From: Croceicoccus sp.
GTDB taxonomy: Bacteria > Pseudomonadota > Alphaproteobacteria > Sphingomonadales > Sphingomonadaceae
Direction: 5' to 3'
DNA: 64,000 nucleotides
NCBI GenBank assembly: GCA_002694745.1
Contig: NZMY01000013.1
Location: 1-64,000 of the forward strand
Below, one piece after another: positions 1-45,385 of this stretch. The position numbers and the translations under genes were made by a program. The notes under the pieces were generated by a model. The model did not search any database. It worked only from the letters and a program-made list of their open reading frames with translations, and was not told where the DNA came from. Within the stretch, counting starts at the first letter, position 1; each line of letters opens with the position of its first letter.

Positions 1-82
1 CTGCGAGGCCTGGAACAAGCTCGTCGATCAGCCGTGGCGCATCATGACCATCGGCCGCCGCAAATGGGCCCGTAGGTTCTGA
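1..82 (+). mobile_element. IS630-type transposase, C-terminal fragment
   Basis: Frame 2 is open from the left edge and ends at TGA 80-82. The last residues include PWRIMTIGRRKWA, which resembles the conserved tail of IS630-family DDE transposases (typically WRIMSIG..EWA). Only about 26 codons are visible, so the catalytic DDE domain lies outside the window. The reading frame ends about 120 bp from the end of the minus-strand dehydrogenase gene, and the next minus-strand gene is truncated in exactly this interval. Identification rests on a short tail only. Confidence 0.6.
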
Positions 83-94
83 TCAGTGCAGGTT

Positions 95-204
95 GGTATC
101 AGTTCGGGCGCCGGCAGGTCGAGCTGCGCGAAATAGCCCAGCATTTTGCACAGCAGCCCGCTGTCGGACACTGCGACAGCGCTTATGCGGACCTGCCCGC
201 TCAT
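95..204 (-). pseudogene. 5' fragment of an unidentified gene cut by the IS630-type element
   Basis: An ATG at 204-202 overlaps the TGA of the dehydrogenase gene (201-203) in an ATGA junction, the same coupling used elsewhere in this operon. The frame reads MSGQVRISAVAVSDSGLLCK and continues for about 35 credible codons. Then, near 95-105, it runs into sequence next to the transposase end and stops at the edge of the transposase tail. The most economical reading is that a last operon gene was split by insertion, with its remainder left of the window. The product is not recognised, and the exact junction cannot be fixed without the IS terminal repeat. Confidence 0.45.
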
Positions 205-1274
205 GCCGCCTTCACCCTCCCCGGCGGCAGGCCGATCAGTTCGCGTGCCCGCGCATCGGCCGCGCGATGCGGGGGCAGTTTCCGTTCGTCCGCAAGGTCG
301 AAAACGGCGGACAGGCGCTGGCCGGTTTCCTTCACCCGGCGCTCGACCTCGACCTGCGTCCAGCCGAGATATTCGCCCGCGACGTTCACGATCCCGCCAG
401 AGTTGACGACATAATCGGGCGCATAGAGCACACCGCGCTCAGCCAGCCTGTCGCCATCGGCATCGGTGGCAAGTACGTTATTGGCGGCTCCGCACACGAC
501 GCGGGCCCTCAGCCTGACAACCGATTGCGCATCGATGACGGCACCCAGCGCACAGGGGGCGAACACATCGCAATCCGCGCCAAGAACGGCATCGGGCGAC
601 ACCACGCTGGCATGACATTCTTGCGCGACGGCCTCTGCCACGTCGCGGCGCATGTCCGCGACCACCAGACGCGCGCCCGCACGGTCCAGAAGGCGGCACA
701 AATGCGACCCGACATGGCCCAGCCCCTGCACCGCCACGGTCATTCCGCGCAGGTCCGATCCGAATTTGCGGCGCACGGCTTCCTCCATCGACAGGAACAC
801 GCCCAGCGCCGTCCATGGCGAGGGATCGCCGCCGGGCCTGCCGGACCGCGCTGACAATCCGGCGACATGATCAGTGTGGCTGCGCACGTCCTCCATGTCG
901 GCGACGCTGGTTCCGACATCCTCTGCGGTGACATAGGACCCGCCCAGCCGGGCGACCTCGCGACCAAAGGCTTCGAACAGGCGGCTGCGGTCGAACGGCT
1001 TTGACGGCAGGCGAAGCACCGCCTTGCCCCCGCCCAGCGGCAGGTCGGCCATGGCGTTCTTGTAGGCCATGCCCTCTGCCAGGCGGAACGCATCGCGCGT
1101 CGCGGCCCTGATGTCGGGATAGTGCCAGAACCGGCACCCGCCCGCCGCCGGACCGCGGCGCGTGGAATGCAGCACGATGACCCCTTCCAGACCGCTTTCG
1201 GGATCGGAAATCATGTGCACAGCCTTGGGCGGGGAACCGGCTGGGTGGGCGGCAAGACTGGTCAGTTCGGACAT
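201..1274 (-). CDS. Leu/Phe/Val (Glu-family) amino-acid dehydrogenase
   Basis: About 357 aa. NAD-dependent oxidative deamination of a hydrophobic L-amino acid to its 2-oxo acid is expected. The N-terminal catalytic domain has the glycine-rich PLGGGKAVL motif (79-87) with the catalytic Lys84 and the upstream substrate-binding lysine in MAYKNAM. The C-terminal Rossmann domain starts with AVQGLGHVGS (181-190), and GAANN follows later. The ATG at 1274 is chosen because AAAGGAG lies just upstream and family homology begins there; the frame is open further upstream. It follows an Lrp-type regulator gene after a 141-bp gap, probably in one operon. Exact substrate preference cannot be read from sequence. 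Confidence 0.85.
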   Translation of the reverse strand: MSELTSLAAHPAGSPPKAVHMISDPESGLEGVIVLHSTRRGPAAGGCRFWHYPDIRAATRDAFRLAEGMAYKNAMADLPLGGGKAVLRLPSKPFDRSRLFEAFGREVARLGGSYVTAEDVGTSVADMEDVRSHTDHVAGLSARSGRPGGDPSPWTALGVFLSMEEAVRRKFGSDLRGMTVAVQGLGHVGSHLCRLLDRAGARLVVADMRRDVAEAVAQECHASVVSPDAVLGADCDVFAPCALGAVIDAQSVVRLRARVVCGAANNVLATDADGDRLAERGVLYAPDYVVNSGGIVNVAGEYLGWTQVEVERRVKETGQRLSAVFDLADERKLPPHRAADARARELIGLPPGRVKAA

Positions 1275-1415
1275 GGAAACTCCTTTGTGTCGAGGAGTCT
1301 TGTCGGGGATTTCGAACGGTATTGCTGTTCTATTTGCGGGCCGGCGCGTGCTGTCTCGGAATGATCTCACCGCAATATTCATCAAACCGGGCGAATTTTG
1401 CCCCGGGCCGCGGTA

Positions 1416-1889
1416 CTACGGAACCGGCAGAGCCGTCGTCGCCTTGATCTCTGACAGCGCGACGGTCGAATTGACCTCCTGCACGCCGGGCAATTGCGAC
1501 AGGCAATCGAAGAAGAAGCGCTCATAGGCCTCGATATCGGGCGCGACGATGCGCAGCAGGAAATCGACCGATCCCATCATCACATAGCATTCCAGCACCT
1601 GCGGAAAGCCCTGTATCGCCTTGGAAAACTCGTCGAGATTGGCGCGGCCATGCGCGTTCAGCTTCACCTGCGCGAAGATATGGGCGTTGAGGCCCAGCTT
1701 CTTGCGGTCGGCAATCGCGACGCGCCGCTTGATGAAGCCCTCGCGCTCCAACCGGTCGATCCGCCGCCAGCAGGGCGAGGACGACAGCCCGACCTTCTCC
1801 GCCACCGCCGATGTCGAGAGCGAGGCATCCTCCTGCAACAGCGCGAGGATCTGCTTCTCATACCGGTCGAGCGTATCGGGTTCCGACAT
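1416..1889 (-). CDS. Lrp/AsnC-family transcriptional regulator
   Basis: 157 aa. The N-terminal winged HTH covers about residues 7-65 (LDRYEKQILALLQEDA, then VGLSSSPCWRRIDRLEREG). A C-terminal RAM ligand-binding domain follows (about 70-150, containing VLECYVMMGSVDFLLRI). Such proteins sense amino acids and often control the neighbouring catabolic gene. Here that would be the amino-acid dehydrogenase immediately downstream, separated by 141 bp that could hold its binding site. The start lies 10 bp after the stop of the M19 dipeptidase, so it is probably also transcribed from the long upstream operon. Confidence 0.9.
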   Translation of the reverse strand: MSEPDTLDRYEKQILALLQEDASLSTSAVAEKVGLSSSPCWRRIDRLEREGFIKRRVAIADRKKLGLNAHIFAQVKLNAHGRANLDEFSKAIQGFPQVLECYVMMGSVDFLLRIVAPDIEAYERFFFDCLSQLPGVQEVNSTVALSEIKATTALPVP

Positions 1890-1899
1890 GGCGTCCCTG

Positions 1900-3102
1900 C
1901 TACCGCGCCGCGGCTTCGGCGGCGCGCATGATGCGCAGCACGTTTCCGCTGGTCATCTTCTCGATATCCTCGGCCGAATATCCCGCCGCGAGCAGGCTTT
2001 CGGTGATACTGGGCAAGGCAGAGATCTCCATCAGTCCCTCGACACCGCCGCCGCCGTCCCAGTCCGCGCCAAAGCAGACATGATCCGTCCCCGCCACGTC
2101 GATCACGTGCAACAACGCCTGCATGTAACGGTCGAAATCGATGGTCCACAGCGGATCCGCCGCATCCAGTGCGCGTGTCCTGCGGGTCAAATCCTGCTGC
2201 TCTTCGGGGCTCATGCTGGCGATATGGCCATATTGATCGAACAGTTCAGAGCGTTCGGGCCCCATCTGCATCTCGCTCATGAAGATGGTCGACATGCAGA
2301 TTGCCCCGCCCGATTCCGCCAGGCGCTTGATCCTTGCATCGTCAAGGTTGCGCGGATGATCGAACGCCCAGCGCGGCGAGCTGTGCGACAGGATGATCGG
2401 TGTTTTCGACAGTTCGACAAGCTGGTCGAACGCGGCATCCGAAGAATGGCTGCCGTCGATCACCATGCCCAGCCGGTTCATCTCGGCCACCCATTCGCGG
2501 CCCAGCGGGCTCAGCCCGTTCCAGCGCGCATCGTCGGTGGCGGAATCGGCGAACTGGTTGGTGCCCGAATGCACCGGTCCCGCCATGCGGACGCCGCGCC
2601 GGTAGAATTCCTCCAGCAGCGAGACATCCTCGCCCAGCGGATAGCTGTTCTCGATGCTCTTCAGCGCGACCAGTGTGCCTGCCGCGGCAAGGCTCTCGAC
2701 CTCTGCGGCACTGGTCGCAAGGCGGATCATATCGGGATGGCGGGCGATTTCCCGGTCGATCGCGTCCGACCGCCCGCGAGCGAAGGCCAGCGCGTCGCGA
2801 TAGCCCTCGGCAGTCAGCGGGCCCTGATCGGTGAAGGTGACGAAGAACCCGCCATCGAGATAACCCTGCGCCATGCGGCCAAGATCGACCTGCGCGACAT
2901 CGCTTTCGAAACTGTGACTCGCGGCGAAATCCCAGCCTTCGCGCCCGAAGTTGACCGGCGTGTCGAGGTGGGTGTCGAGCACCAGCAGATCGCGGTGCAC
3001 CTGCTGCGGATCGGCCTGCATCGGGGCGGTATTGGGGGCCACGGCGCAGCCGGCCAGCAGGGCCAATGTAGCAAGCGAGAGAAGCGGATTAGGGCGGGTC
3101 AT
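1900..3102 (-). CDS. M19 family membrane dipeptidase, lipoprotein
   Basis: 400 aa. Zinc dipeptidase of the renal-dipeptidase family; members cleave dipeptides, often tolerating a D-residue at the C-terminal position. A lipoprotein signal ends in LLAGC (Cys19), placing it in the periplasm on a membrane. The binuclear zinc set is intact: HLD (His45, Asp47), the bridging Glu151 in SIENS, His219 in DGSHS, His240 in LSHSS, and an Asp in GADWDGG. The start ATG at 3102 overlaps the stop of the transporter gene (ATGA), indicating translational coupling. The context of a DgcN-like protein and a transporter suggests peptide or D-amino-acid scavenging. Confidence 0.88.
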   Translation of the reverse strand: MTRPNPLLSLATLALLAGCAVAPNTAPMQADPQQVHRDLLVLDTHLDTPVNFGREGWDFAASHSFESDVAQVDLGRMAQGYLDGGFFVTFTDQGPLTAEGYRDALAFARGRSDAIDREIARHPDMIRLATSAAEVESLAAAGTLVALKSIENSYPLGEDVSLLEEFYRRGVRMAGPVHSGTNQFADSATDDARWNGLSPLGREWVAEMNRLGMVIDGSHSSDAAFDQLVELSKTPIILSHSSPRWAFDHPRNLDDARIKRLAESGGAICMSTIFMSEMQMGPERSELFDQYGHIASMSPEEQQDLTRRTRALDAADPLWTIDFDRYMQALLHVIDVAGTDHVCFGADWDGGGGVEGLMEISALPSITESLLAAGYSAEDIEKMTSGNVLRIMRAAEAAAR

Positions 3103-4238
3103 GCGGGTTGCTCGCTCGTCTTGTGACTTTGCGCTGAGGACCGGAACAGCCGGTATACGCCCACTGTCATCAGCGGAAGGACGAAGGTTGCCAGGAACAC
3201 ATAGGCCATCAGCCGATAGCCCGAGGCGATCAGGTCGACCAGCCCGATCCGGCTGGCCACGAACATACAGCCAGCCAGAATGGCCAGCGTCAGCGCGGGG
3301 CGGAACCATCGCGGCGCCGGCCCCTTTCCCTTGCGTGCCGCGCGAAACGCCAGGGCGCGTTCGTTAAGCGCATGGATCACCCCGACCCCGCTTTCCAGCA
3401 GGGCGCCGAACACCATCAGCTGAAAGACGAAGCGGAATGCCGGGCTTCCCATGCGCTGCAGCAGATAGTCGGACGGAAGCGTTTCGGTCAGGATCTGCGG
3501 ATAGAAACCGACCATCGCGATCAGGAAGAACAGCGCGGGCAGCATTGCCATCGGACCGGCGATAGCCCCCGCGACAAAGGCCTGCCGCCGCGAGGTCTGG
3601 TGCTGAAGCACGGGCAGGATCATCACCGCCGCCACGATGTTATAGGCGCCATAGGTCACGCCCGACAACGCCCAGCCCGGCTCGATCCCTCCGGCGGCAA
3701 AGCTGGCCGAGATGCGGTCGCCGAAACTGGTCAGCGCAAGCACCAGAAACGCCGCATAGACGGTGTAGAGCAGCATCGAGACATATTTGAACATCGCCTC
3801 GACCGCGTTTTCGCCCAGTCCGGCGATGATCGCGATGCACACGGCCAGCGCCACGGTGCCGACCAGCGCCGGAAGACGGAACAGGCTGACGCCCAGCTCT
3901 CCCGCGGCCGCGCCGAAGACGGCGAGCAGCAGGATCGAGAACAGCAGGAAGCAGATCTCGAAAATCACCGCCGCGCGGCCCAGCAGGCGTTCGATGAAAG
4001 CGCGGTAGTCGTAGCTGCGGAAATGATGCGCCAGCGCGAATGTCATCGCCGCGATCAGGCTCCACATCGCGGCGGCCACCGCCATGGCGAGCATCGCGCC
4101 CACCGGACCTATGGTGAGGAAATATTCGATCAGCTCGCGCCCGGTGGAATAGCCGCCGCCGATGATGACACCCTTCAGCGCCAGCGCAGGGAGCAGATAG
4201 CGCCTGAAGACGCCAGCCTTAGCGGGTTGCTCGCTCAC
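3099..4238 (-). CDS. YkvI-like membrane transporter (APC/LeuT-fold type)
   Basis: 379 aa and very hydrophobic, with about ten predicted membrane spans. The first span carries GVIIGGGYSTGREL, matching the broken-helix GxG(Y/F)xTGRE motif of the YkvI family of uncharacterised amino-acid-transporter-like proteins. GTG (4236-4238) is the start: it overlaps the TGA of the preceding DUF1611 gene as GTGA, and family similarity begins there. The frame stays open upstream only as a shadow of that gene. It likely imports the amino acid, acyl-amino acid or peptide handled by its operon partners. The substrate is unknown. Confidence 0.75.
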   Translation of the reverse strand: MSEQPAKAGVFRRYLLPALALKGVIIGGGYSTGRELIEYFLTIGPVGAMLAMAVAAAMWSLIAAMTFALAHHFRSYDYRAFIERLLGRAAVIFEICFLLFSILLLAVFGAAAGELGVSLFRLPALVGTVALAVCIAIIAGLGENAVEAMFKYVSMLLYTVYAAFLVLALTSFGDRISASFAAGGIEPGWALSGVTYGAYNIVAAVMILPVLQHQTSRRQAFVAGAIAGPMAMLPALFFLIAMVGFYPQILTETLPSDYLLQRMGSPAFRFVFQLMVFGALLESGVGVIHALNERALAFRAARKGKGPAPRWFRPALTLAILAGCMFVASRIGLVDLIASGYRLMAYVFLATFVLPLMTVGVYRLFRSSAQSHKTSEQPA

Positions 4239-5275
4239 GCGAGGCAATGGTCGACCAGCGCGTCGAAGGCCCGCCCGCCCCGGACGGGGTCGGCAACCGG
4301 GATGCCCAGCCGGTCGCTTTCGCGCGCGATCAGGCGATCCGCTTCCTCGGCCGAATAGGAGCCTGTGTTGAAGCTGATCCCGCCGCAGCGGATGTCCGGA
4401 TTGGTCAGCTTGCCCAGACGGACCGTCATGTCGATCACCTCCTCGACCGGCGGCAGGCCGAACCCGTCGATGCCCAGCATCGCCTTGCGCGCGGGATCGT
4501 GGCAGACCACGAACACGTCGGGCTGGCTGCCATGCAGCAGGCCCAGTGTGACCGCGGCGAAAGATGGGTTGAACAGCGACCCCTGCCCTTCGATCACGTC
4601 CCAGTGCCCGGCAGGCGCATCGGGGCTGAGTACCTCGGCGGCCCCGGCCTCGAAATCCGAGATGACTGCATCCATGGGAATTCCGCCGCCCGCGATCATG
4701 ATGCCGGTCTGGCCAGTCGCACGGAAATCGGCGTCGATCCCCCTTTCGGCCATCGCGCGGTGAATGGCGAGCGCGGTGTATTTCTTGCCCACCGCGCAAT
4801 CGGTGCCGACGGCGAGCAGGCGCTTGCCCGACCGCTTGCGTCCGGTTCCAACCGGGATGCCCGCTGGCGGCGTACGCACGTCGATCAGGCGGCGGCCATT
4901 GCGCTTGGCCGCCTCGGCAATCGCCGGGATCGCGCCAAGCCGGACATGCAGCCCGCTGACGATGTCGAGGCCGGCGTCCAGTGCCTCGACCAGCGTTGCC
5001 TGCCAGCTTTCGGGAATGACGCCGCCAGAATTGGCGACGCCGATCACCAGCGCCTTGCCCCCTGCGGCCACCGCTTCGGCGGGTGTCATCGGCGTCAGGC
5101 CGACCGAAAGCGCCGAGCCGCCGATCGCAAGCTCGCCCACGCAGCGGTCGCTGGCCCAATGGGCAAGGCCGAACGCGGTCTTGGCAAAGCTGGGCTCCGC
5201 AACGTCGCCGAGAAAGAGAAGATAGGGCTGCGGCAGGTTCAATGAGCCGGCGAGCGTTTGCGATGGCGCGTTCAT
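4235..5275 (-). CDS. DUF1611 family protein, DgcN-like (D-glutamate N-acetyltransferase-like)
   Basis: 346 aa, the full family length. An N-terminal Rossmann-like half (1-140) is followed by a P-loop half with GTDCAVGKK at 157-165. Characterised DUF1611 members include DgcN, which N-acetylates D-glutamate so that a racemase (DgcA) and deacetylase can convert it to L-Glu. No DgcA-like enolase-superfamily gene is visible in the window, so the exact reaction remains open. ATG 5275 is preferred over an in-frame upstream TTG at 5317 because it begins the conserved part. The gene is coupled to the YkvI-like transporter by a GTGA overlap. A TTTTCCAAATGGAGAA element lies 35-50 bp upstream. Confidence 0.75.
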   Translation of the reverse strand: MNAPSQTLAGSLNLPQPYLLFLGDVAEPSFAKTAFGLAHWASDRCVGELAIGGSALSVGLTPMTPAEAVAAGGKALVIGVANSGGVIPESWQATLVEALDAGLDIVSGLHVRLGAIPAIAEAAKRNGRRLIDVRTPPAGIPVGTGRKRSGKRLLAVGTDCAVGKKYTALAIHRAMAERGIDADFRATGQTGIMIAGGGIPMDAVISDFEAGAAEVLSPDAPAGHWDVIEGQGSLFNPSFAAVTLGLLHGSQPDVFVVCHDPARKAMLGIDGFGLPPVEEVIDMTVRLGKLTNPDIRCGGISFNTGSYSAEEADRLIARESDRLGIPVADPVRGGRAFDALVDHCLA

Positions 5276-5309
5276 GTCAGTCCCGGATAAAGGCAAAGGA
5301 ATAGGCCGG

Positions 5310-5325
5310 TTTTCCAAATGGAGAA
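5310..5325. promoter_or_regulatory. Candidate operator upstream of the DgcN-like gene
   Basis: TTTTCCAAATGGAGAA is an imperfect inverted repeat (TTTTCC / GGAGAA). It shares the TTnYCAAA core with elements at 7454, 11096 and 11240. Its position 35-50 bp upstream of the start fits a promoter-proximal operator. No binding evidence is possible from sequence alone. Confidence 0.3.
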
Positions 5326-5374
5326 TAGTGGCCTGAGACGATAAGGCAACCTGCCATGGCGCATGATCCTTCCA

Positions 5375-7348
5375 TCAATACACCATGCCAAAGCCGTAGA
5401 GATTGAACTGAATTGTGACCCATCCGAAGACCAGTCCCGCAAGCAGAAGCAGCACCGCGCCGAGCACCATTGTCCAGCGCTGCTTGCCGCGAATACAAAG
5501 CCACAGGTGCCAGCCCGCAGTGATGATCAGGCCAAGCGCGGCAAGCGGCGTCAGGATGCGCAGCAGGGTGATCAGCCAGTCGAGCGGGCCGCCGATTGCA
5601 CCGATATCAGCCGAAAAGGCCATGACCAGCGCCACCCATCCCGCAACCGCAAGGATGACCAGCCACGCAAACAGGCGCGACAGGCGAAAGGCGGTCAGCG
5701 CGCGACCCTGAAGCATGAATTCGGCGCTGAATCGGCGGCGAACGATGGCGCGCAACGGCCATGCGAGCGCAGCCAGCACCACGATGAACAGCGCGGCCAG
5801 AACGACCGGCATCAGCCAGGCCGGATTGGTCGCGGCGGGTGCCGGTTCCATCACCATGAAGGGCGATACCGCGTCGATGCTGAAGCGCTTTACCTCGCCA
5901 TTCTCGACGGTGGCGGCCAGACGTTCGCCGGTTGCGCGGTCGCGCCATACGAAGGGTGCGACCTCTATCCAGTCGCGTGCGCCCGCGGCGATACCGTCCA
6001 GACCCGGTACCATCAGCGCGCCATCCGGTCCGACGGTTACTTCGATCCCGCCGGCAAGTCCCAGAACGCTCATGAAATTGGTGAACGAGCCGCGGCTGGA
6101 AACATAGGTCCCGGCCATCATCTCGGCATGCTGGCGCGCGGTTTCCGCGTCGATCGGCGTCAGATCGTCGGGCGCCGGGAAATAGCGGTCGGCGAAATTG
6201 TGGAATAGCGCGCTGCGGATTGCGCTCGCCGCGCCGTTCCTGCCGGCGCTGTTGACCGAGATATAGACGCCCACGTTCTCTTCGGGGAACAGCCAAAGGT
6301 CGCTGTGGAACCATTGCGTGTCGCCGCCATGGGCAATGGCGCGGCGGCCATTGACCCATTGTTCATAGAAACCCAGCGCCATGGTGTTGAGCGGACCCAC
6401 GCCCGGCGCGCGGTAGTCATGCATCTCCCGCGCGGTTTGGGGCTGAAGGATCGGCCCGCCATTGGCGAGATGCGCGATCATGAACTTGCCCATGGCCGAA
6501 CCGCTGGCCGCAAGGCTGCCCGCTGGGGCCGGGATCACCAGCTCGTAATCCTTGGGCGCCTGGGTCACGTCGACATAGCCCTTCGACATGAAGGGCTGCA
6601 GCCTGTCGGGCAAAGGCTGGCGGAAGGTCGCATATTGCATGCCCAGCGGCGTGAAAATGCGCTGATCGATATAGTCATCGAACGTCATCCCGCTGACGCG
6701 CTCAACGATATAGCCCGCAAGCGCGGTGCCGTAATTCGAATAGGCTGGCGTCGTGCCGGGCGCATAGACCTGCGCGGGCAGATCTTCGATGACGAATTGC
6801 CGCAACGGCATGATCGCGTCGGGCCGGTCGCTGATAAGGTGCCGGACGGATTCCTCGAACCCCGCCGTATGTGTCATCAGGTGCCGCATGGTGACGGGCC
6901 TGCCCTCGTAATGCGGCACTTCGAAATCGAGATAGGTGTTGATGTCGGCGTCGAGGTCGATCTTCCCCGCCTCGACCTGCTGCATCACCGCGGTCCAGGT
7001 GAACAGCTTGGACACCGAACCGGGGCGGAACAGCGTGGTCTGCGGATCGACCGGCTCACGCTCGGCCAGATCGGCATAGCCATAGCCCTTCTCGGCGATC
7101 GTCTCGCCGTCCTTGACGACCACGACGACCGCGCCGGCAATCCGGCCATGATCCAGCGCATAGGGCATGAAACCGTCGAGCCACGCGGTCACGTCCTGCC
7201 TGTTCAGCGTAGCTACGCCCTCCGGGCTCGGCTGTGATGGCGGAGCCTGCTCCATCGCCGTTTCCGGCTGCAATTGGGGAACCTGCGCCGCAAGCGCGCC
7301 CAGACCCAGCAGGCCCATCAGCACGATCAACACCCGGACAAAATGCAT
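5375..7348 (-). CDS. S12-type serine hydrolase (class C beta-lactamase/D-peptidase fold) with C-terminal membrane domain
   Basis: 657 aa. A signal peptide or anchor is formed by the hydrophobic residues 1-21. The penicillin-binding-fold catalytic set is complete: SVSK (Ser111-Lys114), YSN (Tyr203-Asn205) and HGG (340-342). Family members include DD-peptidases, D-aminopeptidases and esterases. After about residue 510 four to five hydrophobic helices form a C-terminal membrane domain (about 515-655), so the catalytic domain is held at the periplasmic face. ATG 7348 has a good ribosome site (GAGGGGTAGG). It is first in the operon, 100 bp ahead of the DgcN-like gene and divergent from the XRE-cupin regulator. 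A paralogue without the membrane domain lies at 11272. Confidence 0.85.
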   Translation of the reverse strand: MHFVRVLIVLMGLLGLGALAAQVPQLQPETAMEQAPPSQPSPEGVATLNRQDVTAWLDGFMPYALDHGRIAGAVVVVVKDGETIAEKGYGYADLAEREPVDPQTTLFRPGSVSKLFTWTAVMQQVEAGKIDLDADINTYLDFEVPHYEGRPVTMRHLMTHTAGFEESVRHLISDRPDAIMPLRQFVIEDLPAQVYAPGTTPAYSNYGTALAGYIVERVSGMTFDDYIDQRIFTPLGMQYATFRQPLPDRLQPFMSKGYVDVTQAPKDYELVIPAPAGSLAASGSAMGKFMIAHLANGGPILQPQTAREMHDYRAPGVGPLNTMALGFYEQWVNGRRAIAHGGDTQWFHSDLWLFPEENVGVYISVNSAGRNGAASAIRSALFHNFADRYFPAPDDLTPIDAETARQHAEMMAGTYVSSRGSFTNFMSVLGLAGGIEVTVGPDGALMVPGLDGIAAGARDWIEVAPFVWRDRATGERLAATVENGEVKRFSIDAVSPFMVMEPAPAATNPAWLMPVVLAALFIVVLAALAWPLRAIVRRRFSAEFMLQGRALTAFRLSRLFAWLVILAVAGWVALVMAFSADIGAIGGPLDWLITLLRILTPLAALGLIITAGWHLWLCIRGKQRWTMVLGAVLLLLAGLVFGWVTIQFNLYGFGMVY

Positions 7349-7407
7349 AACCTACCCCTCTTGCTTTCTGCCGATCTTGCGGGCCTTCGCCCTTCCGCCT
7401 AGACTGC

Positions 7408-7421
7408 GCTGAAAGTTCAGC
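7408..7421. repeat. Inverted repeat in the divergent S12/regulator promoter region
   Basis: GCTGAA-AG-TTCAGC gives 6-bp perfect arms with a 2-bp spacer, 60 bp upstream of the S12 start and 59 bp upstream of the regulator start. It is a possible regulator site for either direction. Confidence 0.3.
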
Positions 7422-7445
7422 CCGTGGGGGACATAATGATCCTGA

Positions 7446-7477
7446 TTGGAAAATTGTCAAACTTGGAATTGCAAATC
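7446..7477. promoter_or_regulatory. Candidate operator of the XRE-cupin regulator (tandem TTGGAA/TTGNCAAA elements)
   Basis: An A/T-rich patch just upstream of the regulator start holds two imperfect direct copies, TTGGAAAATTGTCAAAC (7446-7462) and TTGGAATTGCAAATC (7463-7477). The 11-mer AAATTGTCAAA (7451-7461) recurs exactly at 11093-11103 upstream of the second dipeptidase. Overlap with the leader next to the start codon suggests autoregulation. Confidence 0.4.
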
Positions 7478-7479
7478 TG

Positions 7480-8103
7480 ATGGCCACGCGTGAGAAACCG
7501 CCCACTCTGGGGCAAGTGATGCGCGGCATTCGGTCCCGGAATGGCTGGACGCTCAAGGAAATGAGCGAGCAGTCGGGCATCCCCGTCTCGACCCTGTCCA
7601 AGGTCGAGCATGACCGACTGACGCTGAGCTATGACAAGTTGCAGCAAGTCAGCCAGCGGCTGAACATCCGCATGTCCGATCTGTTCGCCGAGCAGTCCGA
7701 CGAGGCGATACCGCAGGTCACTGGCCGCCGCAGCCTTGCCACGCTGGACAAGGCGGTGCGGGTCACGACCGACAATTACGATTACTTCTACCTCTGCACC
7801 GATCTGCGGCAAAAGCGCATGATCCCGATCATCACCCGCATCCGCGCCCGCAGCGCCAGCGAATTCGGCGAGCTGGTTCACCATCCGGGCGAGGAATTCA
7901 TCTATGTGATCGAGGGCGCGATCGAGGTGCATTCGGAATTCTACGACACCGTGGTGCTGCACGCGGGCGAAGGGATCTATCTCGATTCCAACATGGGCCA
8001 CGCCTATGTCGCCGCCGACGGCTGCGACGAGGCCGTGGTGCTGGGCATGTGTTCCAGCGCGGGCGAAGGGCTGATGGATTCGCTGATGGACCTGCACGGC
8101 TGA
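7480..8103 (+). CDS. XRE-family regulator with C-terminal cupin domain
   Basis: 207 aa. The HTH_3 domain spans about residues 8-65 (LGQVMRGIRSRNGWTLKEMS, then GIPVSTLSKVEHDRLTLSYD). A cupin_2 sensor domain covers about 120-200 (HHPGEEFIYVIEG, then HAGEGIYLDSNMGHAY). Regulators with this architecture usually respond to an amino acid, amine or related metabolite and control adjacent catabolic genes. It is divergent from the S12-led operon and convergent with the D-aminoacylase gene (22-bp gap). It is therefore the best candidate local regulator for the island. The ATG at 7480 has only a weak ribosome site. Confidence 0.9.
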   Translation: MATREKPPTLGQVMRGIRSRNGWTLKEMSEQSGIPVSTLSKVEHDRLTLSYDKLQQVSQRLNIRMSDLFAEQSDEAIPQVTGRRSLATLDKAVRVTTDNYDYFYLCTDLRQKRMIPIITRIRARSASEFGELVHHPGEEFIYVIEGAIEVHSEFYDTVVLHAGEGIYLDSNMGHAYVAADGCDEAVVLGMCSSAGEGLMDSLMDLHG

Positions 8104-8125
8104 TCACGCCGACGACGCGACCGGC

Positions 8126-9838
8126 TCAGTTCGCGCAGGCCCCGCCATCGGGCCATCCGGTCCAGCCGGGCCCGCGCACCACCCTGCCAGGTGCCGCACC
8201 CGTATGCTCGCCCGCCGCGATGACCTGCGTACCGTTCACGAACACGTCGCGCACGCCGGCCGCATATTGGTGCGGCTGCGCATAGGTGGCGTGATCGGTG
8301 ATCGTTGCCGGATCGAACACCACGATATCGGCCTGATATCCGGGGGTAAGCTGCCCCCTGCCCCGCAAGCCCAGGTTCGATGCAGGCAGTCCGGTCAGGC
8401 CATGGATCGCCTGCTCCAGCGGCAAAGCCTTGTCCTCGCGCACATATTTGCCCAGCAGCCGCGCGAAGTTCCCATAGGTGCGCGGATGGACCGCGCTCTC
8501 CAGCGCCTCGCCCTCCGCCGCCGGAGCGCTTGCGTCCGAGCCAAAGCTCATCCACGGCAGCGCGGTCTGAGCCTTCACATTGTCTTCGGACATCATGAAA
8601 TAGACCGCGCCGATCCCGCCGTCCGCAATGACGAGATCGATCACCGTGTCCTCGATGCTGGTGCCGCGCTCCGCCGCGATCTCGGCCAGCGTCTTGCCCA
8701 GCAGCGGCTCGGCCTCCGCCGTCTCGGCCTCGACCAGCAGAACGCCTTCGCCCCCGCCCGCGGCGCGCAGCAGGTTTTCCCAGTCGTTCTCCTCCGCGCG
8801 CATATCGGCAAGGATGCGCGCACGGGTCGCCGGATCTCGCAAGCGTTCGACCATCGCCTCGCGTCCGCCGCTATGTGCCCATGGCGGGATCACCGCATCG
8901 AGGCTCGTCCCGCCCGCGGTATAGAGATACATGTTGGTGGTGATGCGAAGGCCGGACGCGCGTGCTTCCTCGATCTGTGCGACCACTTCGGGCAGCCTGG
9001 TCCAGTTGCGCTTTCCGGCGAGTTTCAGATGATAGATCTCGGCCGGCAATCCGCCCTCGCGGGAAATCGTGATGACCTCGTCGATGGCCTCGCCGATATT
9101 GTCGGCTTCGGACCGCATGTGGCTGATATACATGCCGCCGCAGCGCCCCGCCTCGCTCGCCAGCGCGACCAGTTCGGGCGTCTCGGCATAATTGGCGGGC
9201 GCATAGATCAGCGCGCTGCCGACGCCCATCGCGCCTTCCTCCATCGCCTGCCGCACCAGCGCTCTCATGCGAGTCAGCTGTTCGGGCGTGGGATCGACGT
9301 CCTTCTCGCCAAGCTCGTGAATGCGGATCGTCGTCGCGCCGACGAAGCTGGCGACATTGGGCGAGACGCCGCGATCCGCCAGCGTGTCGAGATATCCGCC
9401 CAGCGTCGTCCAGCCGGGGGCCGTGCCCAATTCCTCGGCCATTTCGCCGCGCATCGCGTCGTTCAACGGGCCCATCGTCCAGCCCTCGCCGAACACTTCC
9501 AGCGTGATGCCCTGTTTCAGGTCGGACATGCCGCGCCCGTCTTCCAGCAGCGAGCGATTGGCCCAGCTCAGCATGTTGATGAAGCCGGGGGCGACGGCCT
9601 TGCCCGATGCATCGACGACCCTGTCCGCCGCGCCCGAAAAGATGCCCACCGCCACGATCCGGTCGCCTTCCACCGCAACATCGCCGATATAAGGCGCGCC
9701 GCCCGACCCGTCGTAGATCGTGCCGCCCCGGATCACGAGGTCATAGGCGTCGTCCGCTTCCAGCGCTTCGCCGGACATTGTCGCACAGCCGAACAACAGC
9801 GGAAGCGTCAGCGCGGCAAACCCGTTGCGGATCGTCAT
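8126..9838 (-). CDS. N-acyl-D-amino-acid deacylase-like amidohydrolase, lipoprotein
   Basis: 570 aa. COG3653-type amidohydrolase; relatives remove acyl groups from N-acyl-D-amino acids. A lipobox LLFGC (Cys18) indicates a periplasmic lipoprotein. Later ligands are recognisable: His240 in YISHMRSEAD, His270 in IYHLKLAG and an Asp in FGSDAS. However, the usual first-strand HxH (PGFIDxHTH) is replaced by PGFINMLSW (84-92), and the usual cysteine motif GNCG by GEGW (117-120). Metal binding must therefore differ from the characterised D-aminoacylases. ATG 9838 is used because GAGAGGGG lies about 7 nt upstream; ATGs at 9844 and 9862 are alternatives. It lies 31 bp after the Tat-exported M19 gene, in the same operon. 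Confidence 0.8.
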   Translation of the reverse strand: MTIRNGFAALTLPLLFGCATMSGEALEADDAYDLVIRGGTIYDGSGGAPYIGDVAVEGDRIVAVGIFSGAADRVVDASGKAVAPGFINMLSWANRSLLEDGRGMSDLKQGITLEVFGEGWTMGPLNDAMRGEMAEELGTAPGWTTLGGYLDTLADRGVSPNVASFVGATTIRIHELGEKDVDPTPEQLTRMRALVRQAMEEGAMGVGSALIYAPANYAETPELVALASEAGRCGGMYISHMRSEADNIGEAIDEVITISREGGLPAEIYHLKLAGKRNWTRLPEVVAQIEEARASGLRITTNMYLYTAGGTSLDAVIPPWAHSGGREAMVERLRDPATRARILADMRAEENDWENLLRAAGGGEGVLLVEAETAEAEPLLGKTLAEIAAERGTSIEDTVIDLVIADGGIGAVYFMMSEDNVKAQTALPWMSFGSDASAPAAEGEALESAVHPRTYGNFARLLGKYVREDKALPLEQAIHGLTGLPASNLGLRGRGQLTPGYQADIVVFDPATITDHATYAQPHQYAAGVRDVFVNGTQVIAAGEHTGAAPGRVVRGPGWTGWPDGGACAN

Positions 9839-9869
9839 TTCCATTCCCCTCTCCCGGACCATGCCCCGA

Positions 9870-11009
9870 TCAAATCCACGTATCGCCCAGCAGCCGCCTG
9901 AAATTGCCACCCAGCACCAGCTTGATATTCTCGTCCGAGTAGCCGCGTCGGATCAACTCCTCGGTCAGGTCATAGGTCTTGAGCGGGTGATCGAAGCCGT
10001 CGGTGTCGATCTTCTCGCGGAATGCATAGGCCGTCTGGTCATATGCCTTGCGCAGCATCTTGTTCTGGTCGGCAGGCATATCGTCATAGCCGTTGAGGTC
10101 GGAGTCGGAGCCGATCCCGACATGTTCGATCCCCACCAGCTTCGCGACATGGTCGATATGCGTGGCCATGTCGGTGACGGTGACGGGTTCGTCCTTGCTG
10201 ACGAACATGCGTACTTCGGTGATGCCCATGACCCCGCCCTTTGCCGCGAGCATCTGGATTGCCTCGTCGCTCTTGTTGCGGACATGCGGATTGATCGCAC
10301 GGCAATTGGAATGGGTGATCGCGATGGGCTTGGGCGAGGCCTCGATCGCGTCCATCGTCGTGCGCTCCGCACAATGCGAGACGTCGACCAGCATCCCCAC
10401 GCGGTTCATTTCCTCGACGATGGCGGCGCCGAAATTGGTGAGCCCGCCATCGACCCTGTCGGTCGAACCCGATCCGATGAAGTTCTGGCTGTTATAGGTC
10501 AGCTGCGCACAGCGCAGCCCCATGCGGTAGAAATATTCGACATCGGCGGGCTTCTGGAACTGGTCGGCGTTCTGGATGCCTAGAATGACGGCGATCTTGC
10601 CATCGGCCTTCGCGCGTTCCAGGTCCGGCGCCTTGTCGACCAGTGTGAAGTGGTCGGACTGGCTGCCGATGTAGTACGACCAGCGGCCCAGATACTCCAT
10701 CGCCTGGTCCTTGCCGTTAAATCCTCCCAGCCCAACCGCCTGGTGGAAACCGGTGATGCCCGACGACTTGAATTCCTCCAGCGATTTCGCGTCGAAAGGC
10801 TCGTCGAAGAAGTCCTCGCGAAAATCGATCTTGAGCGGGGCCAGCATGTCGATCACCAGCGCCTCGTTCACAAGATCCATCGCGCGCCGCGAATAGGTGC
10901 GGCCCGGCGCGGCGGCCAGCGCATAGCTGCCCTTGTTGATCATGAACGCCGCAGCCGCTGCCCCGGCGGAAAGCTTGAGCGCAGAGCGGCGCGATTGGGT
11001 CGATTTCAT
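9870..11009 (-). CDS. M19 (membrane dipeptidase) homologue with Tat signal and altered metal site
   Basis: 379 aa. The N-terminus carries a twin-arginine signal (SRRSALK at 7-13, followed by an alanine-rich stretch), so it is exported folded. The M19 fold is clear: DVSHC with His212, ITHSN with His233, and a late GSDSD aspartate. The first-strand HxD zinc motif is replaced by IDMLAPL (53-59), and the bridging Glu is a Gln (Gln146 in LGIQNA). The first zinc site is thus probably lost. It could be a mononuclear or divergent enzyme, or a binding protein. ATG 11009 has AGAGGGGAAG upstream. It is first in an operon with the D-aminoacylase-like gene, and a regulator-like motif lies 87 bp upstream. 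Confidence 0.8.
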   Translation of the reverse strand: MKSTQSRRSALKLSAGAAAAAFMINKGSYALAAAPGRTYSRRAMDLVNEALVIDMLAPLKIDFREDFFDEPFDAKSLEEFKSSGITGFHQAVGLGGFNGKDQAMEYLGRWSYYIGSQSDHFTLVDKAPDLERAKADGKIAVILGIQNADQFQKPADVEYFYRMGLRCAQLTYNSQNFIGSGSTDRVDGGLTNFGAAIVEEMNRVGMLVDVSHCAERTTMDAIEASPKPIAITHSNCRAINPHVRNKSDEAIQMLAAKGGVMGITEVRMFVSKDEPVTVTDMATHIDHVAKLVGIEHVGIGSDSDLNGYDDMPADQNKMLRKAYDQTAYAFREKIDTDGFDHPLKTYDLTEELIRRGYSDENIKLVLGGNFRRLLGDTWI

Positions 11010-11092
11010 CAAGACTTCCCCTCTGGCCAACGCGGCCAAAGCGCAATGCGCCGGCTGCGTCATTTCAAATCAGGATGATGACGCCTGTTTAG

Positions 11093-11106
11093 AAATTGTC
11101 AAATGG
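11093..11106. promoter_or_regulatory. Candidate operator upstream of the M19/D-aminoacylase operon
   Basis: AAATTGTCAAATGG repeats the 11-mer AAATTGTCAAA found at 7451 in front of the XRE-cupin regulator. It also shares CAAATGGA with the element at 5310. It lies 84-97 bp upstream of the dipeptidase start. Confidence 0.4.
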
Positions 11107-11239
11107 ACCGATCGTTGGCGGGGCAAAGAGACAGGATTTCGCTACAGAAACCCCCGGATATGGGCCGGATTTGTAGCCTCCACGGCTGCTTTAGGGGTTA
11201 GGCGCTCTCACGGTTGACCTGTCCCGGATATCGGTTAGG

Positions 11240-11256
11240 TTTCCAAACAGAAAATT
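11240..11256. promoter_or_regulatory. Candidate operator upstream of the second S12 hydrolase
   Basis: TTTCCAAACAGAAAATT matches the TTnYCAAA pattern of the other sites in this island and lies 16-32 bp before the start codon. The downstream GAGGTGG (11261-11267) is the ribosome site. Confidence 0.3.
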
Positions 11257-11271
11257 TACGGAGGTGGAATC

Positions 11272-12810
11272 ATGTTTGCTATTGGCCGCAACCGGATGCC
11301 GGTTTTCACGACCGCATCGCGTCTCACCTTTGCGCTTCTCGCGGCTGCTCCACTTGCGTGTCCCGCCGCCGCAGCACAAACCGCCCCGGTCGCCGCCACC
11401 GCCTTCGATCCCGACGCGCATCTCGGCGGGCTGCAGGATTTCGTCGACGGCGTCATGGTCGAACAGATCGCCTCTCGCGAGGTTGCGGGCGCGGTGGTGA
11501 CGGTGGTGCATGACGGGCAGATCCTGTTCACCCGCGGCTATGGCTATGCGGATATCGATCAGGACCGGCCGGTCGATCCGATGCAGACCCTGTTCCGGCC
11601 CGGTTCGGTGTCCAAGCTCTTCACCTGGACCGCGCTGATGCAACAGATCGAGGCGGGGCATGTCAGCCTCGACGACGATGTTGCCAAATATCTCGATTAC
11701 GACCTGCCGCCCTTCGACGGCCCGCCGATCCGCGTGCGCGACCTGTTCCAGCACACGCCGGGCCTCAGCGACATTGGCGGCATCATCGTGCGCGATCCGG
11801 AAAACCTGCCCTATTATGCCGACTGGATGAAGGAGAACATTCCGGACCGCATGTGGGCACCGGGGACCGAGGTGTCCTATTCCAACTATGGCTCGGTCAT
11901 CGCAGGCTATATAGTAGAGCGTGTTTCGGGCGAGCCTTTCGCCGACTATGTCGAGAAGCATATCTTTAGGCCGCTCGGGATGAACGCCTCCACCTTCCGC
12001 GAGCCATTGCCCGCCTCGCTGAAGGCGAACATGGCTCTGGGCTATACGCTCGAGGACGGCCAGTTCGTGGCCCAGCCCTATGAATTCGTCAGCCCCGTCC
12101 TGCCGGCGGGATCGGTGGCCGCCACCGCGCCCGATATGGCGCGATTCATGCTGGCCATGCTGAACCGGGGACAACTGGGCGATGCGCGCATATTGAAGCC
12201 GGAGTCGGTGGAATTCCTCTTCAGCGATTCCTTCGCCAACACGCCGAACCTGCCGGGCATGGCGCATGGTTTCCTCGTCTATAACGAAGCCGGCCCGCGG
12301 CTCGTCGGCCATGCGGGCAACACCGGGGACTTCCATTCCGACCTGATCATCGCGCCCGAACACGGTTTCGGCTTCTTCGTATCGACAACCGGCGGGCAGG
12401 AAAGCGGCGCGGGGCGCACCGATCTGGGCCATGCGATCCTTGGCCGCGTATTCTCCGAAGAACCGACCCCGCGCTGGACCGGGACCGATGCGGTGCAGCC
12501 TCCGCTGGGCGCCTATCGCAGTAACCGCCGCGATTACAGCAAGGAGCCGCGCGCCGAATACGACCTCAAGGTTTCGATGCCCGAACCGCATCTCGTGCTG
12601 GTGGAAAGCTATGACGGAACCACCGCGTGGGAACAAATCGGACCGAACCTCTACGAAAAGGTCACGGCGGCGCGCGAAGGCGGACCGTTCACGCAGCTGG
12701 AATTCTACGGCCTGCCCGACAACCCGCGGCTATCCTTCTCCGACCACCCGTACGAGACCTATCACTTCGTCCCGAATGCCCCTGATGCCGCGGAGGCGGG
12801 CGAGGACTAG
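11272..12810 (+). CDS. S12-type serine hydrolase, secreted (no membrane domain)
   Basis: 512 aa. A signal peptide covers about residues 1-36 (cleavage near PAAAAQ). The catalytic motifs SVSK (Ser112-Lys115), YSN (Tyr203-Asn205) and HAG (347-349) are present. The protein is closely related to the product of the gene at 5375-7348 but ends without the C-terminal helices, so it should be a soluble periplasmic or surface hydrolase. The third motif differs (HAG instead of HGG). ATG 11272 follows a strong GGAGGTGG. It is divergent from the M19/D-aminoacylase operon and followed by a strong terminator. Confidence 0.87.
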   Translation: MFAIGRNRMPVFTTASRLTFALLAAAPLACPAAAAQTAPVAATAFDPDAHLGGLQDFVDGVMVEQIASREVAGAVVTVVHDGQILFTRGYGYADIDQDRPVDPMQTLFRPGSVSKLFTWTALMQQIEAGHVSLDDDVAKYLDYDLPPFDGPPIRVRDLFQHTPGLSDIGGIIVRDPENLPYYADWMKENIPDRMWAPGTEVSYSNYGSVIAGYIVERVSGEPFADYVEKHIFRPLGMNASTFREPLPASLKANMALGYTLEDGQFVAQPYEFVSPVLPAGSVAATAPDMARFMLAMLNRGQLGDARILKPESVEFLFSDSFANTPNLPGMAHGFLVYNEAGPRLVGHAGNTGDFHSDLIIAPEHGFGFFVSTTGGQESGAGRTDLGHAILGRVFSEEPTPRWTGTDAVQPPLGAYRSNRRDYSKEPRAEYDLKVSMPEPHLVLVESYDGTTAWEQIGPNLYEKVTAAREGGPFTQLEFYGLPDNPRLSFSDHPYETYHFVPNAPDAAEAGED

Positions 12811-44592: not shown

Positions 44593-44647
44593 TCTAGATA
44601 AGACCTTCGGTCCGATCCTAAGGGCAGCGACCGAAACTGGAGGTAAC

Positions 44648-45385
44648 ATGGAATTCGACGCGGACAGCTATTTCGGATCGTGCCCTGTGTGCGGATGGGT
44701 CGGAGAATTCGTGCGCAACCATCGCGCGATCCGGGAAACCTATAACTGCGGCGGCTGTCGAGCCTCATTGCGCGAGCAGGGACAGGCTGATGCCCTCGTG
44801 CGGCATTACGCCCTACCCGGCGTGACGTCATTGGCAACACTCGTCACTTCGACAAGCATTGCCAGGCTTTCCGTATACGAACCGGGACTCAGCGGAACCC
44901 TGCGCCCGTATTTGGGCCGGATCGCGGATTATACACAGTCCTTCTACTACACTCCCGAAGAACGCGCCGCCGCGCCAGTCCGCCATGAGGATTTGCAGGC
45001 TCTCAGCTTTCCCGATTGCCGTTTCGACCTGGTCGTAACGTCCGATGTCCTCGAACACGTTCGACATCCTTTATCAGCTTTCGCCGAAATCTTTCGAGTA
45101 TTGAAGCCTGGCGGTTTGAATCTGTTCACGGTGCCGCTTCAAGAGCCATTGAGGCAACAAACCACTTGGCGCGTGGATACCAGCGGACCGGAAGACGTGC
45201 ATCTCCTTGAAGAGCAATATCATGGCGACGGCCGTGGCGGCAGGTCGCTGGTCTATGCCAATTTCGGGCGGGATATCGTCGACATGCTGGCAGAAACAGG
45301 ATTCGAAACCGAACTGGTCTATCCTCGCACGCCGAGCGAAATTGCCAACCGTGCCATCACTGTGAAGGCCGTGCGCCCGTCTTGA
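44648..45385 (+). CDS. Class I SAM-dependent methyltransferase with zinc-finger-like N-terminus
   Basis: 245 aa. The N-terminus has a CPVCGW ... CGGC four-cysteine knuckle (12-45). The Methyltransf_11 core is seen in DLVVTSDVLEHVRHP and VLKPGGLNLFTVP. The canonical early glycine loop is less obvious (LSVYEPGLSGTL). ATG 44648 has a good GGAGG. It lies 55 bp after the giant GT and probably methylates a sugar or a glycan intermediate in this cassette. Confidence 0.82.
   Translation: MEFDADSYFGSCPVCGWVGEFVRNHRAIRETYNCGGCRASLREQGQADALVRHYALPGVTSLATLVTSTSIARLSVYEPGLSGTLRPYLGRIADYTQSFYYTPEERAAAPVRHEDLQALSFPDCRFDLVVTSDVLEHVRHPLSAFAEIFRVLKPGGLNLFTVPLQEPLRQQTTWRVDTSGPEDVHLLEEQYHGDGRGGRSLVYANFGRDIVDMLAETGFETELVYPRTPSEIANRAITVKAVRPS

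What the first reader, a model, noticed from the sequence alone, without database searches (positions are those of the whole stretch)
201..12810. Candidate D-amino-acid / N-acyl-peptide scavenging island
One 12-kb block combines two S12 (D-peptidase fold) hydrolases, two M19 dipeptidase homologues, a D-aminoacylase-like lipoprotein, a DgcN-like protein, an amino-acid-transporter-like permease, an amino-acid dehydrogenase, and two amino-acid-type regulators. Export signals (lipobox, Tat, Sec) put the hydrolases outside and the permease, DgcN-like protein and dehydrogenase inside, a consistent import-and-use order. I know of no described pathway with this full set.
Basis: partly seen in the sequence, partly recalled or inferred. 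Interest (0 to 1): 0.7.

Follow-up and report, generated by a model that had tools for sequence, protein, structure and literature searches.

The report
D-peptide scavenging island, split in two
A block of genes in a sphingomonad bacterium looks like half of a conserved kit for digesting peptides that contain mirror-image (D-) amino acids; a missing key enzyme lies elsewhere in the same genome, beside a copy of the same switch.

Summary
In detail: all ten named genes are there, and a TonB receptor (13395-16118) belongs with them. The neighbourhood is conserved. In Croceicoccus marinus, Novosphingobium and Sphingobium (which lacks POT) it is an operon: XRE-cupin regulator | S12 hydrolase - DgcA-type epimerase - POT peptide transporter - TonB receptor - DgcN - permease - S12, then often M19 or amidohydrolase. 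In G025, another genus, about 26 kb holds every window gene except the amidohydrolase. The window lacks DgcN's partner DgcA. The same genome has DgcA and POT on contig C42, beside a paralogous regulator with the same promoter site; no third exact site was found. C42 matches the C. marinus operon except for 4.7 kb (receptor-DgcN-permease) and the terminal amidohydrolase. Best reading: exported hydrolases free D-residues (probably acidic), transporters import them, and DgcN with C42's DgcA converts them to L-amino acids. The microcystin mlr cluster uses the same families; MlrE is 43% identical to window M19a, and the one mlr genome found also carries the full operon. Cautions: M19b and the D-aminoacylase-like protein lack canonical metal ligands; no substrate is shown; DgcA may instead be a dipeptide epimerase.

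The parts
201..1274 (-). ELFV-family amino-acid dehydrogenase (leucine/tryptophan-dehydrogenase-like); the ORF can start at 1385
   Evidence: Pfam PF00208/PF02812; nearest solved structures leucine dehydrogenases; 67% in C. marinus and 56% in G025 islands
1416..1889 (-). Lrp/AsnC-family regulator
   Evidence: PF01037; 67% and 71% homologues beside the dehydrogenase in two island relatives
1900..3102 (-). M19a: lipoprotein dipeptidase with intact HxD/Glu/His/His metal motif; same subfamily as MlrE
   Evidence: PF01244; 401 bits to dipeptidase 2rag; 43% to MlrE; alignment
3099..4238 (-). Permease, LeuT/APC fold; gene overlaps M19a and dgcN by 4 bp
   Evidence: AlphaFold model pLDDT 84.8; Foldseek to LAT1, AdiC, ApcT, AgcS; adjacent to dgcN in 6 of 6 island-type loci of the 59 relatives
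4235..5275 (-). DgcN-type N-acetyltransferase (DUF1611), island group
   Evidence: PF07755; NF041892 451 bits, cut-off 480; best PDB match 7xrj, N-acetyltransferase DgcN-25328
5375..7348 (-). S12a: exported S12 serine hydrolase with C-terminal membrane helices; SVSK, YSN, HGG motifs
   Evidence: PF00144; motifs and helices; nearest solved: PBP-related 2qmi, IS11 7spn, alkaline D-peptidase 4y7p
7430..7455 (+). Promoter/operator-like site of the XRE-cupin regulator, shared with contig C42
   Evidence: 40.9-bit PWM site (itself one of the eight used to build the matrix); only two exact pattern matches in the genome, reversed-pattern control 0
7480..8103 (+). XRE-cupin regulator (HTHcup), PuuR-like layout
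   Evidence: PF01381 + PF07883; 65-71% homologues at island operons
8126..9844 (-). D-aminoacylase-like amidohydrolase lipoprotein, non-canonical metal site (no HxH, Cys to Glu)
   Evidence: PF07969; D-aminoacylase 1rjp E 1e-76; alignment of relatives
9870..11009 (-). M19b: Tat-type exported M19 homologue lacking HxD and bridging Glu
   Evidence: PF01244; 4 of 59 relatives have it at E 1e-60, 3 of the 4 beside dgcN; alignment
11272..12810 (+). S12b: exported S12 serine hydrolase
   Evidence: PF00144; 62% homologue in the G025 island; nearest solved include 2qmi and ClbP
13395..16118 (+). TonB-dependent receptor, right end of the island; not orthologous to the receptor inside the C. marinus-type operon
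   Evidence: PF00593/PF07715; 52-54% homologues flank the island in G025 and G023; 24% over 177 residues to the operon's own receptor

Best explanation
The block is one of two physically separate parts of a D-peptide utilisation regulon in a Croceicoccus genome. Exported S12 and M19 hydrolases (and perhaps the amidohydrolase) trim D-residue-containing peptides outside the inner membrane. The TonB receptor brings pieces through the outer membrane; the APC-fold permease imports freed amino acids, and the POT transporter of contig C42 imports di/tripeptides. Inside, DgcN acetylates the D-amino acid (most likely D-Glu or D-Asp type) and the C42-encoded DgcA inverts the N-acetyl product, which is deacetylated to the L-amino acid; the ELFV dehydrogenase deaminates co-released L-amino acids. 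The two XRE-cupin regulators act on the same promoter site. Shown here: gene content, conservation, the shared site, the segments missing from C42, the predicted fold of the permease, and the grouping of DgcN and DgcA in trees. Inferred: direction of transport, substrates, chemistry, regulation, the deacetylase (not identified here), and that the C42 DgcA serves the window DgcN.
For: Operon present with annotation on plasmids of C. marinus, Novosphingobium EMRT-2 and S. yanoikuyae, and, with some changes of order, in G003, G023, G025 and G209. Island DgcN form one group (100/100, 10 rows) and island DgcA one group (83/96, 10 rows, two of them the same G025 gene). Island-type DgcN and DgcA are each in 5 of 59 relatives and together in 4 (P 5e-5); the permease is in 14 of 59, 13 of them with a DgcN, against 20 of 59 for DgcN overall (P 2e-7). 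7xrj (DgcN) is the best structure match. C42 holds regulator | S12a-DgcA-POT-S12b, collinear at 89% with C. marinus except that 4.7 kb with receptor-DgcN-permease is absent. The only two exact promoter-site matches in the genome are the two regulator promoters. M19a has an intact metal site. A permease homologue is divergent from a DUF1611 gene in a haloarchaeon.
Against: DgcN and DgcA both score just under their NCBIfam equivalog cut-offs (451 of 480; 380 of 400), so substrates may differ from D-Glu. G434, another order, has the operon with DgcA and POT but no DgcN or receptor in the 20 kb examined; G012, a congener in 810 contigs, has regulator, S12a, DgcA and POT but no DgcN in its genome. 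G018 has island DgcN and permease without an island DgcA or regulator. M19b and the amidohydrolase lack canonical metal ligands. 8 of 16 permease hits are not within 10 kb of a DgcN, two of them on contigs under 10 kb. The window's receptor is not the operon's receptor. Other sites in the window score no better than background (13-14 bits; one outside the island also 14.0), and no site of 18 bits or more was found in 5 of 16 loci scanned, one of them (L076) with a 77% regulator homologue.
Confidence: 0.5

Rival explanations
1. The epimerase works on dipeptides, not N-acetyl amino acids: POT imports L-Xaa-D-Glu-type dipeptides (for example from peptidoglycan), DgcA epimerises them, and peptidases finish; DgcN serves a separate free-D-amino-acid branch.
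For: POT directly follows DgcA in C. marinus, EMRT-2, G209, G003 and C42. G434 has DgcA and POT without DgcN in 20 kb. E. coli L-Ala-D/L-Glu epimerase 1jpd is the second-best solved relative (E 1e-57), with the lysine and metal motifs (roles recalled) conserved.
Against: The DgcA model fits better (380 bits) than the E. coli-type epimerase model (245 bits), though neither cut-off is met. S. yanoikuyae's operon has DgcA and DgcN but no POT.
Confidence: 0.25
2. General N-acyl-amino-acid or peptide catabolism with no D-specificity; the D-specific names come from family labels only.
For: The amidohydrolase and M19b have altered metal sites; S9 and S15 peptidases sit in some relatives' islands; the dehydrogenase resembles L-leucine dehydrogenases; the S12s match D-peptidases, beta-lactamases and esterases alike.
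Against: DgcN and DgcA groups are tied to the island, and dgcN is described as the key gene of an irreversible racemisation pathway for acidic D-amino acids and their amides (PMC12363236, passage).
Confidence: 0.15
3. Detoxification: exported S12 D-peptidases and M19 enzymes destroy D-residue-containing peptide antibiotics, with nutrition as a by-product.
For: A D-stereospecific peptidase that hydrolyses gramicidin A is reported in Bacillus (PMC9541196, title and start of abstract seen in the listing); S12b's solved relatives include ClbP.
Against: Uptake and amino-acid-processing genes dominate, and no efflux or target-protection gene was recognised in the block.
Confidence: 0.1

Closest known systems
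DgcN-DgcA D-glutamate catabolic pathway (EC 2.3.1.312 and 5.1.1.25)
   Same: DgcN is DUF1611 with a DgcN crystal structure as best match; the genome has a DgcA-like epimerase.
   Different: Both proteins form groups apart from the DgcN/DgcA of the other loci examined and fall just under the curated cut-offs; here they sit with S12/M19 hydrolases, POT, APC permease, TonB receptor and XRE-cupin regulator, and in this genome on two contigs.
mlrABCDEF microcystin-degradation cluster (Sphingopyxis C-1, Novosphingobium, Sphingosinicella)
   Same: MlrB is S12, MlrD is POT, MlrE is M19 (43% to window M19a), MlrF is D-aminoacylase-like (34% to the window protein).
   Different: No MlrC-family (PF07364) protein in the window genome and no mlrA primer site with up to 1 mismatch; MlrF keeps the canonical metal motif that the window protein lacks; MlrB is only 25-32% to the island S12s.
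E. coli L-Ala-D/L-Glu epimerase murein-peptide route
   Same: Enolase-superfamily epimerase with conserved KxK, VDAN, EQPL, ADES and LDK motifs.
   Different: Scores higher to the DgcA model than to this family's model and has POT, S12 and DgcN partners.

Membership tests
DgcN-DgcA D-glutamate pathway | DgcN of the curated equivalog family (NF041892, cut-off 480 bits) | tested here: inconclusive
   451.2 bits, full length but below cut-off; a DgcN next to a DgcA that passes (L037) also scores below, 471.7; DUF1611 Pfam cut-offs met; 7xrj best match
DgcN-DgcA D-glutamate pathway | DgcA (NF042940, cut-off 400) present | tested here: inconclusive
   Not in the window; C42 protein 379.8 bits, below cut-off
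DgcN-DgcA D-glutamate pathway | dgcN and dgcA together in one locus | tested here: not met
   Separate contigs in this genome; together in G003, G006, G023, G025, EMRT-2, S. yanoikuyae and G209
DgcN-DgcA D-glutamate pathway | D-Glu N-acetyltransferase and N-acetyl-Glu racemase activity | not testable with these tools
   Needs enzyme assays
mlr microcystin cluster | MlrA microcystinase | tested here: inconclusive
   No mlrA primer site with up to 1 mismatch in the own genome; no protein-level search of the own genome was made
mlr microcystin cluster | MlrC (M81, PF07364) | tested here: not met
   0 matches in the own genome
mlr microcystin cluster | S12, POT, M19 and D-aminoacylase genes in one cluster | tested here: not met
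   Three of the four families are in the window; POT is on C42; homology to MlrB/D/E/F
Canonical binuclear M19 dipeptidase | HxD, bridging Glu and two His metal ligands in M19a | tested here: met
   Aligned with 2rag and MlrE; residue roles recalled
Canonical binuclear M19 dipeptidase | the same motif in M19b | tested here: not met
   HxD replaced and Glu to Gln in all 4 M19b sequences aligned
D-aminoacylase (A. faecalis type) | HxH and Cys zinc ligands | tested here: not met
   Both replaced in the window protein and in L031, L032, L033, L037 and L059; L030 keeps HxH but not Cys; MlrF and L044 keep both; residue roles recalled

The most novel reading that the evidence does not exclude
Sphingomonads carry a D-peptide regulon, in several cases on megaplasmids, in which exported D-peptide hydrolases, dedicated transporters and irreversible D-to-L conversion by an island-specific DgcN/DgcA group form one circuit under one XRE-cupin operator. 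It supplies the unassigned downstream half of microcystin breakdown (fate of D-Glu and D-methylaspartate), and shares ancestry with mlrD and mlrE. In the window genome the circuit was broken by deletion at one locus and restored by a second island of different origin.
Probability: 0.25. Interest if true: 0.72.

Novelty: new variant of a known kind. Interest (0 to 1): 0.55.

Why it matters
D-amino acids are counted among recalcitrant dissolved organic matter (abstract starts). [quoted passage not shown]

Tried and rejected
The ORFs 3372-4358(+) and 4247-5245(+) were scanned and dropped: no family match; they lie antisense to permease and dgcN. A mlrA primer scan of genome contigs gave one hit, L090 (Pseudoduganella), rejected as chance because none of the island queries matched the 8 kb. 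MlrA against the plasmid collection gave nothing. A genome-wide regulon from the promoter site was not obtained: beyond the two exact sites, two 3-mismatch sites on C8 and C57 were not followed. A looser pattern in the window alone was not above chance: 6 matches against 4.1 expected, 25 of 100 shuffles as high. Sites at M19b and the TonB receptor in the window were considered and not claimed. The island does not stand out by base composition (GC 0.637 against 0.643). M81/MlrC-family genes near DgcN (G058) and within about 2 kb of distant XRE-cupin homologues (G022, G048) were noted from coordinates only. The 60% identity line used for 'island type' was chosen after seeing the hits; the trees agree with it.
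Full report
WHAT IS THERE. The window is bases 1-64000 of contig C35 of a 4.02-Mb genome in 59 contigs, so window base 1 is a contig end. One same-genus genome (G006) has a contig of 761,621 bases with dgcN at the same coordinates as Croceicoccus marinus plasmid pCME4A9I, so the genus is taken to be Croceicoccus. All ten genes of the finding are confirmed; a TonB-dependent receptor at 13395-16118 belongs with them. M19a and permease, and permease and dgcN, overlap by 4 bp, and Lrp follows M19a by 10 bp, so at least dgcN-permease-M19a look co-transcribed on the minus strand.

CONSERVATION. Sixty genomes (own plus 59 relatives) were searched with DgcN: 20 of 59 relatives have a match, 35 matches in all. 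Stretches of up to 20 kb around all 35 were mapped by tblastn. Six of the 35 loci belong to the window's DgcN group (L028-L033). All six have the permease next to dgcN and an S12 gene (in L030 only a 31% match); five of six have the XRE-cupin regulator at 65-69% identity; four of six have an island-type DgcA within about 10 kb (L029, L031, L032, L033); two have M19b; three have the amidohydrolase at 59-69%. L028 lacks the regulator and an island DgcA, and L030 lacks an island DgcA in its stretch. Of the other 29 loci, two have the permease (L040, L043) and none has the regulator at 60% or more (L043 41%, L052 25%); 21 of 29 have a DgcA-like gene next to dgcN. G025, in another genus of the family, holds in about 26 kb (C35, 43.6 to about 69.7 kb; L029 and L080) homologues of every window gene except the amidohydrolase, plus DgcA, POT, a second TonB receptor, further S12s and S9/S15 peptidases.

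ANNOTATED COPIES. Plasmid records show the operon plainly: C. marinus (XRE | serine hydrolase - dipeptide epimerase - peptide MFS transporter - TonB receptor - DUF1611 - hypothetical - serine hydrolase - amidohydrolase; Lrp and dehydrogenase on the other side), Novosphingobium EMRT-2 and Sphingobium yanoikuyae (no POT by annotation or tblastn, with a dipeptidase).

STATISTICS. With 60% identity as the line for 'island type' (chosen after seeing the hits), DgcN is in 5, DgcA in 5 and the regulator in 6 of 59 relatives. Overlaps: DgcN-DgcA 4 (P 5e-5), DgcN-regulator 4 (P 1.6e-4), DgcA-regulator 5 (P 1.2e-6). The permease is in 14 of 59; 13 of these have a DgcN (20 of 59 overall; P 2e-7). Eight of 16 permease hits lie within 10 kb of a DgcN. 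Relatedness of the genomes is not corrected for. M19b (E 1e-60) is in 4 of 59 relatives, and 3 of the 4 sit beside dgcN. In trees, island DgcN (10 rows) form one group at 100/100 and island DgcA (10 rows, two of them the same G025 gene, one of these partial) one group at 83/96, in 81% of bootstrap trees; one DgcN row (L039) was left out by the program.

THE SECOND LOCUS. No epimerase was found in the window; the genome's three matches to the epimerase domain are at C35:144822, C42 and, weakly, C45, and only the C42 protein matches as a DgcA. It lies in the order regulator | S12a-DgcA-POT-S12b. Against the C. marinus operon this gives two collinear blocks at 89% identity, with 54 bases where C. 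marinus has 4,708 holding receptor-dgcN-permease; the amidohydrolase that ends the C. marinus operon is absent too. G003, EMRT-2 and G209 keep the receptor-dgcN-permease segment, so a deletion in this lineage is the simpler account; G434 of another order lacks receptor and dgcN but keeps the permease. The window's DgcN groups with G018 and not with its congeners, while C42's DgcA groups with Croceicoccus: the window copy looks like a replacement of different origin. The window's receptor is not an orthologue of the operon's (24% over 177 residues). Whether C35 and C42 are one replicon is unknown.

SHARED SWITCH. Promoters of both regulators carry GACATAATGATCCTRATYRGARAATT. A 20-base pattern with up to 3 mismatches has two exact matches in the genome, these two, plus two 3-mismatch sites not followed; the reversed control gave 0. 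A matrix built from eight sites was run on 16 loci. Sites of 18 bits or more occur in 11 of 16. Strong ones not used to build it lie at the regulator of S. yanoikuyae (39.9 bits), upstream of S12a in G025 (32.3), and upstream of the TonB receptor in G012 (36.2), G023 (34.0), S. yanoikuyae (25.7) and G003 (24.6). L028, L040, L043, L075 and L076 have none of 18 bits or more, although L043, L075 and L076 carry regulator homologues (41%, 53%, 77%). Five single-base shuffles of the window gave 0.6 hits of 9 bits or more per 64 kb; the window from 20000 on has 3, the best 14.0. Weak sites near M19b and the receptor in the window (13-14 bits) are therefore not claimed. Matches to a pattern are not proof of binding.

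CHEMISTRY. DgcN: best PDB match by sequence and by fold is 7xrj, titled N-acetyltransferase DgcN-25328 (model pLDDT 73.7); the P-loop GTDC-VGK-YTA is shared. Its NCBIfam score is just under the cut-off, as is that of C42's DgcA, so a shift of substrate is possible. PMC12363236 (passages) calls dgcN the key gene of an irreversible racemisation route for acidic D-amino acids and their amides; EC numbers are from PMC11747546 (passage). The founding paper was not held. Permease: LeuT/APC fold, among the closest LAT1, AdiC, ApcT and AgcS. Of seven distant homologues on plasmids I examined five: one is divergent from a DUF1611 gene in Haladaptatus halobius, the other four have no DgcN match within 6-7 kb. 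S12a and S12b keep SxxK and YxN and match D-peptidases, FLP, ClbP, esterases and beta-lactamases, so D-specificity is not shown. M19a is canonical; M19b and the amidohydrolase are not (ligand roles recalled). No deacetylase was identified.

LINK TO MICROCYSTIN DEGRADERS. Okano et al. 2015 (PMC4520899, passage) report mlrE (dipeptidase) and mlrF (D-aminoacylase) beside mlrB. A published mlrA primer with one mismatch found one such locus among 396 genomes of the order (L092). It holds ORFs fitting MlrA, MlrB (S12), MlrC, MlrD (PTR2), MlrE (M19) and MlrF (amidohydrolase) in one block; Pfam was run on MlrB, D, E and F, while MlrA and MlrC are named from position, length and the primer sequences of PMC6563193. 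MlrE's best match among the sets compared is window M19a (43%; next 24%), MlrD's best are island POTs (42-46%); MlrF is 34% to the window protein but 50% to another sphingomonad protein (L044), and MlrB is 25-32% to the island S12s but 34% to one in L037. The same genome carries the complete operon regulator | S12a-DgcA-POT-receptor-DgcN-permease-S12b on another contig. That is one genome; 5 of 59 relatives have an island-type DgcN anyway, so the link is a lead. That microcystins contain D-Glu and D-methylaspartate is from PMC9144602 (passage).

AGAINST THE READING. G434, in another order, has the operon without DgcN in the 20 kb examined; G566 is cut by its contig end; the other two permease genomes of the class sample show none of the other island queries nearby. 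G012 has DgcA and POT but no DgcN. DgcA may therefore be a dipeptide epimerase fed by POT. Only 4 of 384 other genomes of the class sample have the permease at E 1e-30, so the system is sparse.

PRINT. Searches for DgcN with D-glutamate, DUF1611 or dipeptide epimerase, N-acetyl-D-glutamate with racemase, a six-term sphingomonad search, D-aminoacylase with renal dipeptidase, DgcN with Sphingo and D-amino acid, and DgcN with transporter listed no paper that, by title, abstract start or the passages I opened, describes this operon. The library is open-access only, one search listed 20 of 25 papers, and subscription papers are not covered.

VERDICT. Most likely a D-peptide regulon built around a DgcN/DgcA variant, split over two loci in this genome.

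Noticed in passing
window 1-83 (+): The contig begins with the end of a frame reading ...CEAWNKLVDQPWRIMTIGRRKWARRF* (translated by eye), which looks like a transposase C-terminus (IS630-type, recalled), so the island may be cut at or near an insertion sequence.
   Followed up: no
window 39760-48423 (+): Two long ORFs (1610 and 945 aa) with glycosyltransferase domains, the first also with a sulfotransferase domain, lie in a low-GC stretch (about 0.585-0.60), probably a surface-polysaccharide locus.
   Followed up: partly
G058:C1:2827811-2828665, G022:C2:2081021-2081878, G048:C1:1067858-1068709: MlrC-family (M81) genes sit beside dgcN (G058) or within about 2 kb of distant XRE-cupin homologues of about 40% identity (G022, G048).
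   Followed up: no
window 9870-11009 and its orthologues in L029, L030, L040: An M19 subfamily with HxD and bridging Glu replaced in all four members aligned, kept beside dgcN: possibly a different chemistry from known M19 dipeptidases.
   Followed up: partly
L070 7501-8997; NZ_CP019603.1 583875-590038: In C. marinus a tryptophan-halogenase-family gene, an alpha-L-fucosidase and another TonB receptor follow the Lrp/dehydrogenase pair beside the island.
   Followed up: no
L067 12644-18453: On C42 the gluconolactonase-like, GntP permease, GH3 and Gfo/Idh/MocA genes next to the second regulator look like a sugar-use locus.
   Followed up: no
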